Shown here piece after piece: positions 1 to 28,929 of a stretch of DNA of 32,821 nt. The notes under the pieces are model-generated. The model was given only the letters and a program-made list of their open reading frames with translations. It was not told where the DNA came from and did not search any database. The position numbers and the translations under genes were made by a program. Source of the DNA: Bacteroidales bacterium (lineage in GTDB: Bacteria > Bacteroidota > Bacteroidia > Bacteroidales > Bacteroidaceae); assembly GCA_012729225.1 (NCBI GenBank), contig JAAYDO010000193.1, forward strand, positions 1 to 32,821. Reading direction: 5' to 3'. Position 1 is the first letter of the stretch; each line of letters opens with the position of its first letter.

Positions 1-176
1 CTATTAAATTTGCAGTCGTCATAGGAGTGAGTATTATTTGTATCTGTTTGATTTTCACCTATAAAGGTACAAAAAATATTTCACTCCTACAACTTTTCGG
101 GCACTTTTCTTACGTCGAACTCACGTTAAGTAAAAGACACATCTCCGACAGAAAAAGTGAATTCAAGTTTTTTTCT

Positions 177-361: not shown

Positions 362-472
362 AACCATATGGTAATTACTCACAAACCATATAGTATTTAC
401 TCATAAACCATATAGTATTCACTCATAAACCATATAGTAATTTGCCCACGAACCATATGGTCTGTAAGAAAG
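362..472 (+). repeat. five-unit 22-bp tandem array with AACCATAT core
   Basis: Units begin with AACCATAT at 362, 384, 406, 428 and 451, giving periods of 22, 22, 22 and 23 bp. The first and last units carry the perfect palindrome ACCATATGGT, and the inner three carry ACCATATAGT. The spacing is two helical turns, as for an operator array or iterons. ACGCATGGTT at 473-482 directly after the array also occurs in the dispersed repeat further right (28671-28680, and as its complement at 8463-8472). Confidence 0.85.
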
Positions 473-5368: not shown

Positions 5369-8209
5369 ATGGAACGGAAACAAGCAGACTTGAAAGATTA
5401 CATCAGTGTGAGAGGTGCTCGGGTGAACAACCTGAAGAATATCGACGTGAAGATACCACACAACCAGTTCGTGGTGATTACTGGAGTGAGCGGCAGCGGC
5501 AAATCGTCATTGGCTTTCGACACACTGTATGCAGAAGGACAGAGACGCTATGTGGAGAGCCTCTCCACTTATGCGCGCCAGTTCATGGGTCGGCTGAAGA
5601 AACCCGAGTGCGACTTTATAGAAGGCATCTCACCAGCCATTGCCATTGAGCAAAAGGTAATCAGTCGCAACCCTCGTTCCACTGTAGGCACCAGCACAGA
5701 AATCTATGACTACCTAAGAATGCTCTATGCAAGAATAGGCAGAACCTACTCGCCTGTAAGCGGAGTGGAGGTGAAGAAGCACACAACCGATGACATCATC
5801 AAATACGTACTGAAGCACGAGGAAGGGATGAAGATGGTGGTGCTGACACCTCTTGTACTCAGAAATGGAAGAACACTGAAAGAGCAACTGGACATCTGCT
5901 ATAAAACAGGCTACCAGCGCATAGAGATGAAAGACGAGGTGATGAGAATCACAGACCTGCTCACCTCCGAAGAGGAACTCACCGCCAAGCCTGGTGACAT
6001 CAAGTTGGTGATAGACCGCATGAAGGTGGCAAACGAGAAGAGCACACTCAACCGACTGGTTGATTCGGCCAAGACAGCCATGTATGAAGGAGATGGAAAA
6101 TGCATCGTGCGATTTGAGAATGGAGAAGAGAAAGTGTTTTCCATGAACTTCGATGCTGACGGCATTGAATTTGAAGAGCCCACAGACCAGATGTTCTCCT
6201 TCAACTCCCCTGTGGGTGCATGTCCCGAATGTGAGGGATATGGTCGCATCATTGGCATAGACGAGAGCCTGGTGATTCCTGATCCAGAACTGTCTGTTTA
6301 CGACAATGCCGTAGCACCTTGGAGAGGAGAGAAGATGAGTGAATGGAAGAAATATTTTGTCCGAACCGCTGATAAATATGGATTTCCCGTATTCACACCT
6401 TACAGCCAACTGACACAAGAGCAGAAAGATTTCCTTTGGCACGGAGTGGAAGAGGTCAATGAATGGGGCAACCGCTCCATCTGCATCGACGAACTCTTCA
6501 AGATGCTGAGGGAAAATCAGTACAAGATACAATACCGGGTGATGCTGGCCCGCTACAGAGGCAAGACCGATTGCCCCACCTGTCATGGAAGACGTCTGAA
6601 GAAAGAGGCTGAATATGTGAAGATTGGAGGAAAGAGCATTTGCGACCTTTGCGACCTCTCTATCAGCGACCTGCATGAGTTCTTCAGAACACTGAAAGTG
6701 ACAGAACACGAGGCCAAAGTAGCCAAACGCCTTTTGGCAGAAATCAAGAGTCGCTTGCAGTTCCTTATTGATGTGGGGCTCAGTTACCTGACCCTTTCCC
6801 GACTGAGCAGCACACTATCGGGCGGAGAAAGCCAACGCATCAACCTTGCCACCAGTTTGGGTTCGTCACTTGTGGGTAGCATGTATATTCTCGATGAGCC
6901 AAGTATTGGCCTGCACTCCCGCGACACCCACAGACTGATACGTGTGTTGAGAGCCTTGCAGAAGTTGGGAAACACTGTGATTGTGGTAGAGCATGACGAA
7001 GAAATCATGCGTGCAGCAGACTATCTCATCGACATAGGGCCTGACGCAGGAAGGCTGGGCGGTCAAATCATGTATGCTGGCGCACCCCTAAAAGTGGGTG
7101 AAAAGACAGACAAGAAAAAAGGACTCATCGGAGAGACCTCCCACACGATTGACTATTTGACTGGCAAGGAGACCATCGACACTCCACAGACTCGTCGTCC
7201 GTGGAACAACTACATCATGGTAAGAAATGCGAGGGCAAACAATCTGAAAGGTATTGATGTGAAGTTTCCTCTAAATGTGATGACCTGTGTAACAGGCGTG
7301 AGCGGAAGCGGAAAATCCACTTTGGTGAGAGACATTCTCTATAAAGCCATGAAACGGCAATTGGGGGAGACAGGCGACAAGCCTGGTCTGTTCTCCAAGT
7401 TGGAAGGCGACATCAACAGCATCAAGCATGTGGACTTTGTGGACCAAAACCCTATCGGCACCTCATCCCGCTCCAATCCCGTTACTTATATTGGCGCATG
7501 GGATGAAATCCGCAAACTCTTCTCCACCCAGCAACTTGCCAAACAAATGGGCTACACACCCGCCTACTTCTCCTTCAACACTGAAGGCGGACGATGCGAG
7601 GAGTGCAAAGGCGAAGGCTCTGTCACTGTGGAGATGCAGTTCATGAACGATGTCGTGCTGGAGTGTGAGGCATGTCATGGCAAACGTTTCAAGAGTGACA
7701 TTCTGGAAGTGAAATACAAAGGAATGAACGCTTATGACATCATGGAAATGACCATCAACCAAGCAGTGGAGTTCTTTGAACAACACGGACAGAAACGCAT
7801 TGTCAATAAGATGAAACCTCTACAAGAAGTGGGGCTTGGCTATATCAAGTTGGGGCAAACATCTTCCACCCTCTCAGGAGGCGAGAACCAGCGCATCAAG
7901 CTGGCATATTACCTAAGCCAGGAAAGAGCCACCCCTACCCTGTTCATCTTCGACGAGCCTACCACAGGACTGCATTTCCACGACATCAAGAAACTCTTGG
8001 ATGCTTTCAATGCCCTGATAGCGAGAGGACACACCATTTTAATCATTGAGCACAATATGGATGTGATTAAATGCGCAGACCACATCATAGATATTGGTCC
8101 AGAAGGCGGACAGGCTGGAGGACGAATCGTGGCAGAAGGCACTCCCGAGGAAGTTGCTCAATGTGCATACAGCTATACAGGTCAATACCTACAGGACAAG
8201 ATGAAGTGA
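5369..8209 (+). CDS. uvrA: excinuclease ABC subunit A
   Basis: UvrA is the damage-recognition ATPase of nucleotide excision repair; it works as a dimer and loads UvrB on lesions. From the ATG at 5369 the protein is 946 residues, normal for the family. It has two Walker A loops (GVSGSGKSS near residue 39 and GVSGSGKST near 643), two ABC signatures (LSGGESQRI and LSGGENQRI) each followed by a Walker B (LDEPSIGLH, FDEPTTGLH), and zinc motifs CPECEG (Cys285/288), CPTCHG (Cys402/405), CEECKG (Cys743/746) and CEACHG. The CxxC that many UvrA proteins carry about 20-25 residues before FSFNxPxGACP is absent here (NFDADGI instead). The gene appears monocistronic. Confidence 0.95.
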   Translation: MERKQADLKDYISVRGARVNNLKNIDVKIPHNQFVVITGVSGSGKSSLAFDTLYAEGQRRYVESLSTYARQFMGRLKKPECDFIEGISPAIAIEQKVISRNPRSTVGTSTEIYDYLRMLYARIGRTYSPVSGVEVKKHTTDDIIKYVLKHEEGMKMVVLTPLVLRNGRTLKEQLDICYKTGYQRIEMKDEVMRITDLLTSEEELTAKPGDIKLVIDRMKVANEKSTLNRLVDSAKTAMYEGDGKCIVRFENGEEKVFSMNFDADGIEFEEPTDQMFSFNSPVGACPECEGYGRIIGIDESLVIPDPELSVYDNAVAPWRGEKMSEWKKYFVRTADKYGFPVFTPYSQLTQEQKDFLWHGVEEVNEWGNRSICIDELFKMLRENQYKIQYRVMLARYRGKTDCPTCHGRRLKKEAEYVKIGGKSICDLCDLSISDLHEFFRTLKVTEHEAKVAKRLLAEIKSRLQFLIDVGLSYLTLSRLSSTLSGGESQRINLATSLGSSLVGSMYILDEPSIGLHSRDTHRLIRVLRALQKLGNTVIVVEHDEEIMRAADYLIDIGPDAGRLGGQIMYAGAPLKVGEKTDKKKGLIGETSHTIDYLTGKETIDTPQTRRPWNNYIMVRNARANNLKGIDVKFPLNVMTCVTGVSGSGKSTLVRDILYKAMKRQLGETGDKPGLFSKLEGDINSIKHVDFVDQNPIGTSSRSNPVTYIGAWDEIRKLFSTQQLAKQMGYTPAYFSFNTEGGRCEECKGEGSVTVEMQFMNDVVLECEACHGKRFKSDILEVKYKGMNAYDIMEMTINQAVEFFEQHGQKRIVNKMKPLQEVGLGYIKLGQTSSTLSGGENQRIKLAYYLSQERATPTLFIFDEPTTGLHFHDIKKLLDAFNALIARGHTILIIEHNMDVIKCADHIIDIGPEGGQAGGRIVAEGTPEEVAQCAYSYTGQYLQDKMK

Positions 8210-8368
8210 CGGCACTCTTTCCAAGGAAGACTTTCGTCCAATGAAACGACCGTACCCCCTTCCCCCCATTCTTCGGGGAGAGGAAAGAACAGCCTGTGTA
8301 TGCGAGGAAGGAATCGTTGGTGTTCCCTATCATTTGGCACACCAAAAGATGGAAGCATTCTTCATCCG

Positions 8369-8456
8369 CCAACGCACAATGCTTCAAGTGCCAACGCACA
8401 ATGCTTCAAGTGCCAACACACAATGCTTCAAGTGCTCATGAACAATGCTTCGATAG
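8369..8456 (+). repeat. 22-bp tandem array of copy A (4 units)
   Basis: Units 8369-8390 and 8391-8412 are identical, 8413-8434 has one change and 8435-8456 is diverged. The consensus starts CCAACGCACAATGCTTC. The last unit, next to the conserved block, carries CGAT in the same place as the last unit in copy B, so array and block are in register. Confidence 0.9.
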
Positions 8457-8761
8457 CCAACGAACCATGCGTGCGTTTTTGCCCCGACAGGCATCAAGTC
8501 TCTTTTAATTCATAAGCATTTGTTTGTGAATAAGATAAAGGTCCTTTTAGAGGCTCATAAAACTTCTTTCCCTTTCTTGGACGGGTCGCCCCACGACAAG
8601 GTTTGCCAGAATCGCCATGCCTTTCTTCCGCAGAAGGTCTTTCTCCTATGAATGCCTCATGAATTTTGACAAAAAAGGATGAAGGGAAGGAGCATGATTG
8701 CCAAGATGCACCAACAATCGCAACCAACTGTTTCATCTTCCGAATTCGTCAAACTCACGTT
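8369..8761 (+). repeat. dispersed non-coding repeat, copy A
   Basis: The element starts with four 22-bp tandem units (8369-8456). It continues with a 28-nt block (8457-8484) that is identical to the complement of 28659-28686. CAGAATCGCC follows at 8607-8616 with a similar TTCTTCC-ending flank, and it ends with AACTCACGTT at 8752-8761. All four parts recur in copy B in the same order on the opposite strand. The distance from the 28-nt block start to CAGAATCGCC is 150 nt here and 151 nt in B. No transposase or terminal inverted repeat is visible. Confidence 0.85.
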
Positions 8762-8821
8762 ATAAATAATTAAAAGTGAAGTTTTTTTGACAGAATATCC
8801 TCGACTTTATGTTTTTTTCAT

Positions 8822-28203: not shown

Positions 28204-28389
28204 TTTCATATCTCTTTTCATCATAATTCCCCACAACTAACACCAAAATGCAACACAACAAGAATGAACATACCCCTTTTGGAATGTGCGTGCAATCATG
28301 TGTCTGAATGCCCCCGAAAAAGAGTGGCCATCCAATCAGGAATGTATCCAAAGATTCTGGAAACAGATTGTCTATTGAGTGAATGAATG

Positions 28390-28752
28390 AACGTGAGTTC
28401 GATAAATATGGAAGAAGAAATAGATGGTCCCGCTTGTTGGCACATCTTTTCAAGCATACTCATCGCTTTTCATCAAAAATGAAGGGTAATTCAATGGTCA
28501 TTTGACCTCAGTGGAAGAAGGGCGAGGCGATTCTGACAGTCTTTTTCGTTGGACGGCACTTCCAAGGGAACGGAAGGAGTTTCACTTTCTTCTTAAAATC
28601 CCTCATATCTTCTTTATACACAACGATTTATAGACACAAGAGAATCCAATGCCTATAAGGGCAAAAACGCACGCATGGTTCGTTGGTCATCGAACCATTG
28701 TTCGTTGGCACTTGAACCATTATTCGTTGGAACATGAACCATTGTTCGTTGG
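28390..28752 (-). repeat. dispersed non-coding repeat, copy B (inverted relative to A)
   Basis: Read on the minus strand this has the same order as copy A: 22-bp array (28752-28687), 28-nt identical block (28686-28659), CAGAATCGCC (28535-28526) and AACTCACGTT (28399-28390). Spacing from the block to the terminal motif is 287 nt against 295 nt in A. In the middle, part of the two copies aligns codon-like without gaps, but stops break the frame in B. Confidence 0.85.
28687..28752 (-). repeat. 22-bp tandem array of copy B (3 units)
   Basis: Units 28687-28708, 28709-28730 and 28731-28752 each end in CGTTGG on the plus strand. Read on the minus strand they start CCAACGAACAATGGTTC or a one-base variant. 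Copy A has four units with CACAATGCTTC in place of AACAATGGTTC. Confidence 0.9.
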
Positions 28753-28929
28753 AGCAAGACCTACACATGGAGTGAAGACAAGCGCAACAAGAGGGGATGT
28801 CGAAAATAAAAAAGATTCCGATGGAATAATTGTGGACGTGAAATGGAATGATTGCAAAACGGGAGCAGTCCAAGGACATCTACATTGGAAATGGGAAGAA
28901 GGTTATCAACAAATAAAACATCTAACAAC

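What the first reader, a model, noticed from the sequence alone, without database searches (positions are those of the whole stretch)
8369..8761. Composite dispersed non-coding element, two inverted copies 20 kb apart
Copies at 8369-8761 (+) and 28390-28752 (-) share four parts in the same order: a 22-bp tandem array, a 28-nt identical block, CAGAATCGCC with similar flanks, and terminal AACTCACGTT. Block-to-CAGAATCGCC spacing is 150 and 151 nt, and block-to-end spacing is 295 and 287 nt. Conserved spacing with diverged filler suggests selection or recent dispersal of a structured unit (a mobile non-autonomous element, an RNA gene, or a chromosome-organising site). Both copies lie in the largest gene-free stretches of the window. 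I recall translated fragments of the 28-nt block appearing as spurious hypothetical proteins in Prevotella, which hints at a high-copy family.
Basis: partly seen in the sequence, partly recalled or inferred. Interest (0 to 1): 0.78.

Follow-up and report, generated by a model that had tools for sequence, protein, structure and literature searches.

The report
Evenly spaced mobile repeat arrays
The two matching stretches are decayed copies of a small transposable element that carries a 22-bp repeat array and occurs well over a hundred times in this bacterium; unexpectedly, the copies keep their distance from each other along the chromosome, as if the array did a job for the cell.

Summary
The two copies belong to a family of roughly 140-180 per genome (extrapolated; 53 block matches at up to 3 mismatches, reversed control 0; 68 loci in 1.106 Mb). 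The element is longer than described: copy 1 spans about 8230-8761, and family members begin with an inverted copy of their 3' end (ACGTGAGTTCGA), the end type of ISPg3/ISPi1-like insertion sequences. Two of five array-bearing elements with both ends recognisable have exact 7-8 bp target duplications. So it is a MITE with a minisatellite, a kind known from Porphyromonas (BrickBuilt). It is old: leader and tail are 22-23% off consensus. Two results go beyond a plain MITE. Array and block are better conserved than leader and tail in 16 of 16 copies each, and all 65 mapped loci away from contig ends keep the array. Neighbouring copies are never closer than 6.2 kb (0 of 46 intervals under 6 kb; 13.0 expected with gene context matched). 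An unrelated 22-bp array in Prevotella nigrescens is also over-evenly spaced. I read the array as a selected protein-binding site; that function is inferred, not shown.

The parts
8230..8761 (+). copy 1, whole MITE (about 532 bp), between the uvrA stop (8209) and the M64 peptidase gene (8866)
   Evidence: leader/array/tail models hit 8235-8769; ends located by eye; genes by Pfam
8230..8251 (+). decayed 5' terminal inverted repeat (15 of 22 letters match ACGTGAGTTCGATGAAATTACC, counted by eye)
   Evidence: consensus
8252..8351 (+). leader
   Evidence: leader model hit 8235-8365, E 2e-24
8352..8475 (+). 22-bp array: units start at 8352, 8374, 8396, 8418, 8440 and 8462 (the last opens the block)
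8457..8484 (+). 28-nt block CCAACGAACCATGCGTGCGTTTTTGCCC = modified last array unit plus T-run
8485..8742 (+). tail, with CAGAATCGCC at 8607-8616
   Evidence: tail model hit 8480-8769, E 1e-48
8743..8761 (+). 3' terminal inverted repeat AATTCGTCAAACTCACGTT
28390..28753 (-). copy 2: array, block and tail; leader and 5' end not detectable
   Evidence: tail 28385-28663 E 6e-52, array 28649-28747 E 2e-29, no leader hit
28668..28747 (-). copy 2 array units (first letters at 28747, 28725, 28703, 28681)
28659..28686 (-). copy 2 28-nt block
28526..28535 (-). copy 2 CAGAATCGCC
28390..28402 (-). copy 2 3' terminal repeat TCGAACTCACGTT
1..127 (-). end of an insertion sequence with the same terminal repeat (115-127), cut by the contig end
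362..461 (+). array of a second, unrelated 22-bp family (ACCATATGGT plus 12); not part of the finding but same architecture

Best explanation
Shown: the element belongs to a large family of old MITEs whose ends match those of ISPg3/ISPi1-like (IS982-type) insertion sequences, and insertion-sequence ends of that type are present in this genome. Supported: inside each MITE a 22-bp-phased array (units such as GAACAATnnTTC plus 10, usually 3-6 counting the first and last) closed by a fixed block is kept by selection while the transposon ends decay, and copies are retained at even distances (median 12.5 kb), mostly at the 3' ends of genes and between convergent genes. Inferred: each array is a cluster of binding sites on one face of the helix (22 bp is about two turns) for a DNA-binding protein that needs one such cluster every 10-15 kb, for instance to absorb transcription-driven supercoiling or set domain borders, as proposed for REP/BIME elements in E. 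coli. The MITE is the vehicle that carried the site round the chromosome.
For: MITE: inverted ends; exact target duplications TAAGACA and TATGTTTA in 2 of 5 array-bearing elements with both ends recognisable; insertion-sequence ends with the same repeat, at least 14 of 68 repeat matches lying 108-124 bases from a contig end and leading into reading frames; the Prevotella nigrescens element with the same ends scores as IS982 (NF033520, E 2.9e-72) and is flanked by ATACTTA twice (by eye); a host N-terminal peptide is 79% identical to it over 57 aa. Selection: array and block above leader in 16 of 16 and above tail in 16 of 16, Wilcoxon 3e-5 each; 65 of 65 mapped loci not at contig ends have the array, 42 of 68 have all three modules. 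Context: of 66 copies 50 were clear: 25 convergent, 18 same-sense, 4 antisense, 3 divergent; on the mapped contigs elements were assigned to 34 convergent, 29 co-directional and 5 divergent gaps, out of 92, 429 and 100 gaps. Spacing: 46 intervals, minimum 6.2 kb; 0 under 6 kb against 15.7 (random intergenic) or 13.0 (class-matched), 0 of 20,000 and 0 of 10,000 simulations. On the five longest contigs known at the time plus the window: 19 intervals, minimum 8.6 kb, 0 under 6 kb against 5.3, P 0.001 (uniform null). Replicate: P. nigrescens, 45 intervals, CV 0.60 against 0.96, P 0.0001 or less.
Against: No protein has been shown to bind. Tandem units could be homogenised by recombination, which would raise array identity without selection (it would not explain the block). 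The array model was built from copies found through array and block. Even spacing could come from unknown insertion or purging biases. All mapped contigs were first met through hits of this element or its end repeat, so density is biased upward. Genes were called only as long open frames. The 3'-end bias is also what survival of harmless insertions predicts. Only 2 of 5 two-ended elements have a target duplication. P. nigrescens spacing is looser (intervals down to 1.6 kb) and its null is uniform, not gene-matched.
Confidence: 0.5

Rival explanations
1. Plain selfish MITE: an old burst of transposition, insertions surviving only where they do not harm promoters or genes; no host function.
For: Terminal repeats, target duplications and insertion-sequence ends; few copies in divergent gaps; many truncated copies.
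Against: Neutral decay should hit all modules alike, yet array and block are better conserved in 32 of 32 paired comparisons and present at all 65 internal mapped loci. Survival in permissive gaps does not give a 6-kb exclusion: class-matched placement expects 13.0 short intervals, 0 seen.
Confidence: 0.27
2. Spacing comes from the transposition machinery (target immunity of the transposase, or purging of close copies by recombination), not from function.
For: Exclusion zone without any shorter interval; copies share ends.
Against: A second MITE-like family whose flanks end in a similar repeat (by eye) lies within 0.43 kb of a family-1 copy at 3 of 14 mapped loci, and on contig C154 an insertion-sequence end cuts into the tail of a copy about 100 bp from its block, so such ends do not exclude each other. 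Present copies are about 30% diverged, too far for frequent recombination, though they were once identical. Does not explain array conservation.
Confidence: 0.13
3. RNA-level element: structured RNA, 3' UTR stabiliser or intrinsic terminator made of array, block and T-run.
For: Same-sense bias 18 to 4 in co-directional gaps; mean RNA fold z -2.2 (plus) and -2.6 (minus) for array and block in 40 of 66 copies; T-run after the block.
Against: A strand-symmetric fold signal is expected from near-palindromic units; unit-to-unit complementarity within copies is not above cross-copy pairing; no terminator call facing the block in either window copy (0; the one lies inside the array on the opposite strand, shuffles mean 0.8); no Rfam match.
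Confidence: 0.08
4. Chance or assembly artefact.
For: Draft genome of 213 contigs, 88.8% complete.
Against: Reversed controls 0; 258 unit-pair strand matches in the genome (some places on both strands) and 0 in 44 congeners.
Confidence: 0.01

Closest known systems
BrickBuilt MITE of Porphyromonas gingivalis (PMC4596501; abstract, section 4 part 1, section 7 part 1, sections 9 and 10 read)
   Same: Intergenic MITE with leader, internal minisatellite of nearly the same period (23 nt) and tail; leader and tail lost from the outer ends; no leader-tail form without the repeats; found in one species and a near relative.
   Different: 18-19 copies per genome against roughly 140-180; ends of GAGACC type (ISPg1-like) against ACGTGAGTTCGA; unrelated unit sequence; even spacing and module-by-module conservation not discussed in the sections read.
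MITE239 / MITE700 and ISPg3 of P. gingivalis (PMC4596501 Table 2); ISPi1 of Prevotella intermedia (PMC4755523 section 3.2.1 read)
   Same: Nearly the same terminal repeat (MITE239 left end ACGTGAGTTCGA; ISPg3 ACGTCAGTTCGA); ISPi1 is said to share the ISPg3 repeat and to make 7-bp target duplications.
   Different: MITE239 and MITE700 are reported without minisatellite; that table files ISPg3 under IS5, whereas the P. nigrescens relative scores as IS982 here.
PINSR of Prevotella intermedia/nigrescens (PMC4755523 section 3.4 read)
   Same: Intergenic, 177-184 copies per P. intermedia genome, lineage-specific, small CDSs annotated on top; a 22-bp array family in P. nigrescens may be PINSR.
   Different: PINSR is stated to lack terminal inverted repeats; its sequence is in a figure not held here, so identity is not tested.
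REP/BIME elements (PMC1525189 and PMC6639932: passages seen)
   Same: Dispersed extragenic repeats, frequent between convergent genes, reported to bind DNA gyrase.
   Different: Unrelated sequence; REPs are recalled to be mobilised by RAYT transposases, not by elements with terminal repeats; I recall no even spacing for REPs.

Membership tests
MITE | short, no transposase gene | tested here: met
   copy 1 is about 532 bp and no frame of 100 aa or more lies inside it; one on the minus strand (8085-8399) overlaps its 5' part and uvrA
MITE | terminal inverted repeats | tested here: met
   decayed in many copies, including copy 1
MITE | target-site duplication | tested here: met
   7-8 bp in 2 of 5 array-bearing elements with both ends recognisable; no exact match of 4 bp or more in the other 3
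MITE | cognate autonomous element with the same ends | tested here: inconclusive
   insertion-sequence ends of the same type at contig ends, but no complete copy recovered from this draft
MITE | empty sites in sister strains | not tested
   closest congener about 78% identical in the M64 protein; no sister strain held
IS982-type mobilisation (ISPg3/ISPi1 group) | IS982 transposase linked to this terminal repeat | tested here: inconclusive
   met in P. nigrescens: ACGTGAGTTCGACGAATT ends, NF033520 243 bits against cutoff 130; host link indirect, 79% over 57 aa, and the host fragment alone gave no NCBIfam hit
BrickBuilt | GAGACC-type ends and 23-nt unit | tested here: not met
   ends ACGTGAGTTCGA, unit 22 bp
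PINSR | 188-bp repeat without terminal repeats | tested here: not met
   terminal repeats present here; the consensus itself was not available for comparison
REP/BIME | REP sequence and RAYT linkage | not tested
   no RAYT search made; terminal repeats argue against membership
structured RNA (Rfam) | match to a covariance model | tested here: not met
   only a tRNA in the window; no match in six further loci

The most novel reading that the evidence does not exclude
Chromosomes of the host's genus and of Prevotella nigrescens are marked every 10-15 kb by arrays of about 3-6 short dyad-like sites at about two helical turns (21-24 bp). The site sequence is replaced from lineage to lineage (GAACAATnnTTC here; GCAAAA..TTTTGC in P. 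nigrescens; CGGTSTGASTCASACCG three times in six congeners) while architecture and even spacing persist: a fast-evolving chromosome-organising system of Bacteroidales, spread in this species by an IS982-type MITE.
Probability: 0.3. Interest if true: 0.88.

Novelty: new variant of a known kind. Interest (0 to 1): 0.64.

Why it matters
MITEs are usually seen as selfish leftovers placed at random and pruned by harm. A family whose inner array outlasts its own ends and keeps a minimum distance to the next copy would be a clear case of a transposon serving as delivery vehicle for a chromosomal site. It would also give a testable account of PINSR and BrickBuilt, repeats described without known function, and a way to find the binding protein in Bacteroidales, a dominant group of gut and oral bacteria.

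Tried and rejected
RNA gene: Rfam search, unit-to-unit covariation and fold z-scores gave no support beyond what near-palindromic units give. Terminator or sigma-70 promoter: consensus scans of both copies no better than shuffles. Strict dyad symmetry: a scan for evenly spaced dyad triples did not pick up the host family (0 at 7 of 8 letters; 2 against 1.0 shuffled at 6 of 8), so I do not call the host units true palindromes. Period spectrum: 20-25 bp arrays are 3.9-7.3 per 100 kb in the host, G034, G016, other congeners and P. nigrescens samples, 7.9 in G023, 3.3 in other genomes of the order and 1.0 in E. coli; suggestive only, small samples. Orientation along contigs: 28 same against 18 opposite neighbours, no clear pattern. 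Host identity: not named by any tool; Bacteroidales. Wider search: one genome-contig scan gave a single match in an unrelated MAG; viral contigs gave 0 for the block and 3 two-unit matches without leader or tail, read as chance; no plasmid match. Literature searches aimed at this repeat or its kin listed no description of it, in an open-access library only; two searches were for REPs and for even spacing. Empty-site test abandoned: congeners too distant.

Full report
What is there. Copy 1 used as a blastn query finds 40 scored places in its own genome (2.89 Mb draft, 213 contigs, 88.8% complete; first look 173 candidates), copy 2 among them at E 7.8e-40. A 24-nt core of the block has 53 matches at up to 3 mismatches, the reversed pattern none. 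A pattern for two neighbouring array units has 258 strand matches in this genome (some places match on both strands) and none in 44 congeners; the 28-nt block at up to 3 mismatches has none in 60 other genomes.

Anatomy. Aligning copies with their flanks shows that the similarity begins about 140 bp further upstream. The order is: 5' end ACGTGAGTTCGAYGAAAT; leader; a 22-bp array that starts with GAAGCATTCTTC and runs through units such as GAACAATTGTTC, GAACAATGCTTC and GAACAATGGTGC; a fixed last unit GAACCATGCGTGCG followed by a T-run (the block); tail; 3' end ATTCRTCGAACTCACGT, the inverse of the 5' end. Array length differs in steps of 22: the distance from a GAAGCATTCTTC-like anchor (up to 8 mismatches in 23) to the block is 110 in 25, 88 in 25, 66 in 8, 44 in 3, and 132 and 89 in 1 each of 63 copies. 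Three of 66 block matches had been set aside before this count: L008 plus strand and L024 as spurious, L085 as truncated. Copy 1 runs from about 8230 to 8761; copy 2 has no detectable leader.

Mobility. Eight spans with both end repeats were found in the loci then held; five distinct ones carry the array (one is listed twice, two lack it), and two of these five have exact direct duplications at the ends (TAAGACA in L117, TATGTTTA in L002). The same terminal repeat occurs 68 times in the genome at up to one mismatch, reversed control 2. At least 14 of these lie 108-124 bases from a contig end (only contigs of known length) and several lead into insertion-sequence reading frames; the window itself starts inside such an element (1-127). 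The relative in Prevotella nigrescens has the same ends, a 7-bp duplication ATACTTA and a broken IS982 transposase; a host N-terminal peptide is 79% identical to it over 57 residues. The IS982 label for the host's own elements is therefore indirect, and a host fragment alone matched no NCBIfam model. Published relatives of the end repeat: ISPg3, MITE239 and MITE700 (PMC4596501 Table 2) and ISPi1 with 7-bp duplications (PMC4755523, section 3.2.1).

Age and constraint. In 432 kb (parts of the five longest contigs then known, plus the window) separate leader, array and tail models found 21 loci (22 clusters, one split at a stretch border); every locus has the array. Pooled identity to consensus is 0.77 (leader), 0.87 (array and block) and 0.78 (tail); the array leads in 16 of 16 leader pairs and 16 of 16 tail pairs. 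On the wider map, 65 of 68 loci have an array hit and the three without it lie 131-475 bases from contig ends. The ends needed for transposition are thus less conserved than the inner array. Caveats: the array model was built from copies found through the array and block, and tandem units can be homogenised.

Context. With genes of at least 150 aa called as long open frames, 50 of 66 copies were clear: 25 between convergent genes, 18 between co-directional genes with the element in the same sense, 4 antisense, 3 divergent; element-free gaps of at least 150 bp were 16 convergent, 47 co-directional and 18 divergent. The 18-to-4 bias has a two-sided binomial p of about 0.004 (worked by hand).

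Spacing. I mapped 22 contigs, or long parts of them (1.106 Mb, 38% of the genome; all first met through hits of this element or its end repeat): 68 loci, 46 intervals, minimum 6.2 kb, median 12.5, mean 15.2. Random intergenic placement expects 15.7 intervals under 6 kb and 13.2 under 5 kb; none was seen, and none of 20,000 simulations did as well. Matching the gap class of each element still expects 13.0 under 6 kb (0 of 10,000 simulations, CV 0.50 against 0.81; a variant that ignores gaps under 60 bp expects 13.4). Convergent gaps themselves do come closer than 6 kb (16 of 71 intervals). Restricting to the five longest contigs then known and the window leaves 19 intervals, minimum 8.6 kb, 0 under 6 kb against 5.3 (P 0.001, uniform null). 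Loosening detection to E of 1 adds two chance-level hits only. The second MITE-like family of this genome (ACCATATGGT plus 12), whose ends look similar by eye, lies within 0.43 kb of a family-1 copy at 3 of 14 mapped loci, so exclusion does not follow from such ends.

Beyond this genome. Congeners hold their own arrays. CGGTSTGASTCASACCG pairs at 24 bp (up to 2 mismatches) number 18-74 in each of six congeners, 1-2 in three more and 0 in the host; each of the 24 arrays inspected has three units at exactly 24 bp. G016 and G024 carry a related unit (GAACATATGTTC or GAACCTATGTTC plus 10) without the MITE leader or tail, so the unit may be older than its vehicle. In P. nigrescens, 47 loci of an unrelated 22-bp array were found in 550 kb, none between 326 and 461 kb, a stretch rich in conjugation and transposon genes. 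Reversed sequence gives 3 loci against 47 at E 0.001 and 0 against 47 at 1e-5. Without the empty stretch, 45 intervals have CV 0.60 against 0.96 (P 0.0001) and 4 under 3 kb against 13 (P 0.0005 and 0.0002 in two runs, uniform null). With the empty stretch included, the CV test fails (1.67 against 0.97) because of that one gap. PINSR has 177-184 copies per P. intermedia genome and is also found in P. nigrescens (PMC4755523, section 3.4); whether these arrays are PINSR was not tested. Nine intervals of the CGGT family in congener G036 are all above 9 kb, too few to weigh.

Mechanism. Shown: MITE structure, high copy number, age, 3'-end bias, array retention, even spacing. Inferred: selection on the array as a DNA site. 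RNA readings lost ground. The nearest functional analogue is the REP/BIME class, extragenic repeats frequent between convergent genes and reported to bind DNA gyrase (PMC1525189, passages seen); that analogy is about how it may work, not membership. My confidence in the MITE part alone is about 0.93; the stated 0.5 is for MITE plus selected, evenly spaced binding array.

Noticed in passing
window 362-461: Array of a second 22-bp family (ACCATATGGT plus 12 bp); 22 distinct loci in the sequence held, no match in 44 congeners; its flanks end in a similar terminal repeat by eye, so it is probably another MITE.
   Followed up: partly
window 1-127: The contig begins inside an insertion sequence with the same terminal repeat; at least 14 contig ends of this draft lie just inside such an element, so these elements explain part of its fragmentation.
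   Followed up: partly
L250-L269, L217, L219, L221: Triple 17-bp dyads at exactly 24 bp, often between an A- and a T-run and, in two congeners, a longer outer inverted repeat (CTTCCACTGCCTC ... GAGGTAGTGGAAG, by eye); 18-74 pair matches in each of six congeners; three apparently orthologous pairs between G036 and G013.
   Followed up: partly
L226, L227, L229 and L183, L228 (G023): Two more dispersed array families in one congener: a 21-bp AT-rich palindrome in four units at three loci, and a 22-bp unit around GGACTnnAGTCC at two loci.
   Followed up: no
L274, L339-L346, L275, L298 (P. nigrescens NZ_CP082843.1): 22-bp arrays GCAAAA..TTTTGC at 47 loci in 550 kb, absent from 326-461 kb; possibly the published PINSR repeat.
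   Followed up: partly
L211 (contig C131, 206-927): Two opposed terminal repeats 722 bp apart, a possible larger relative or insertion-sequence remnant.
   Followed up: no
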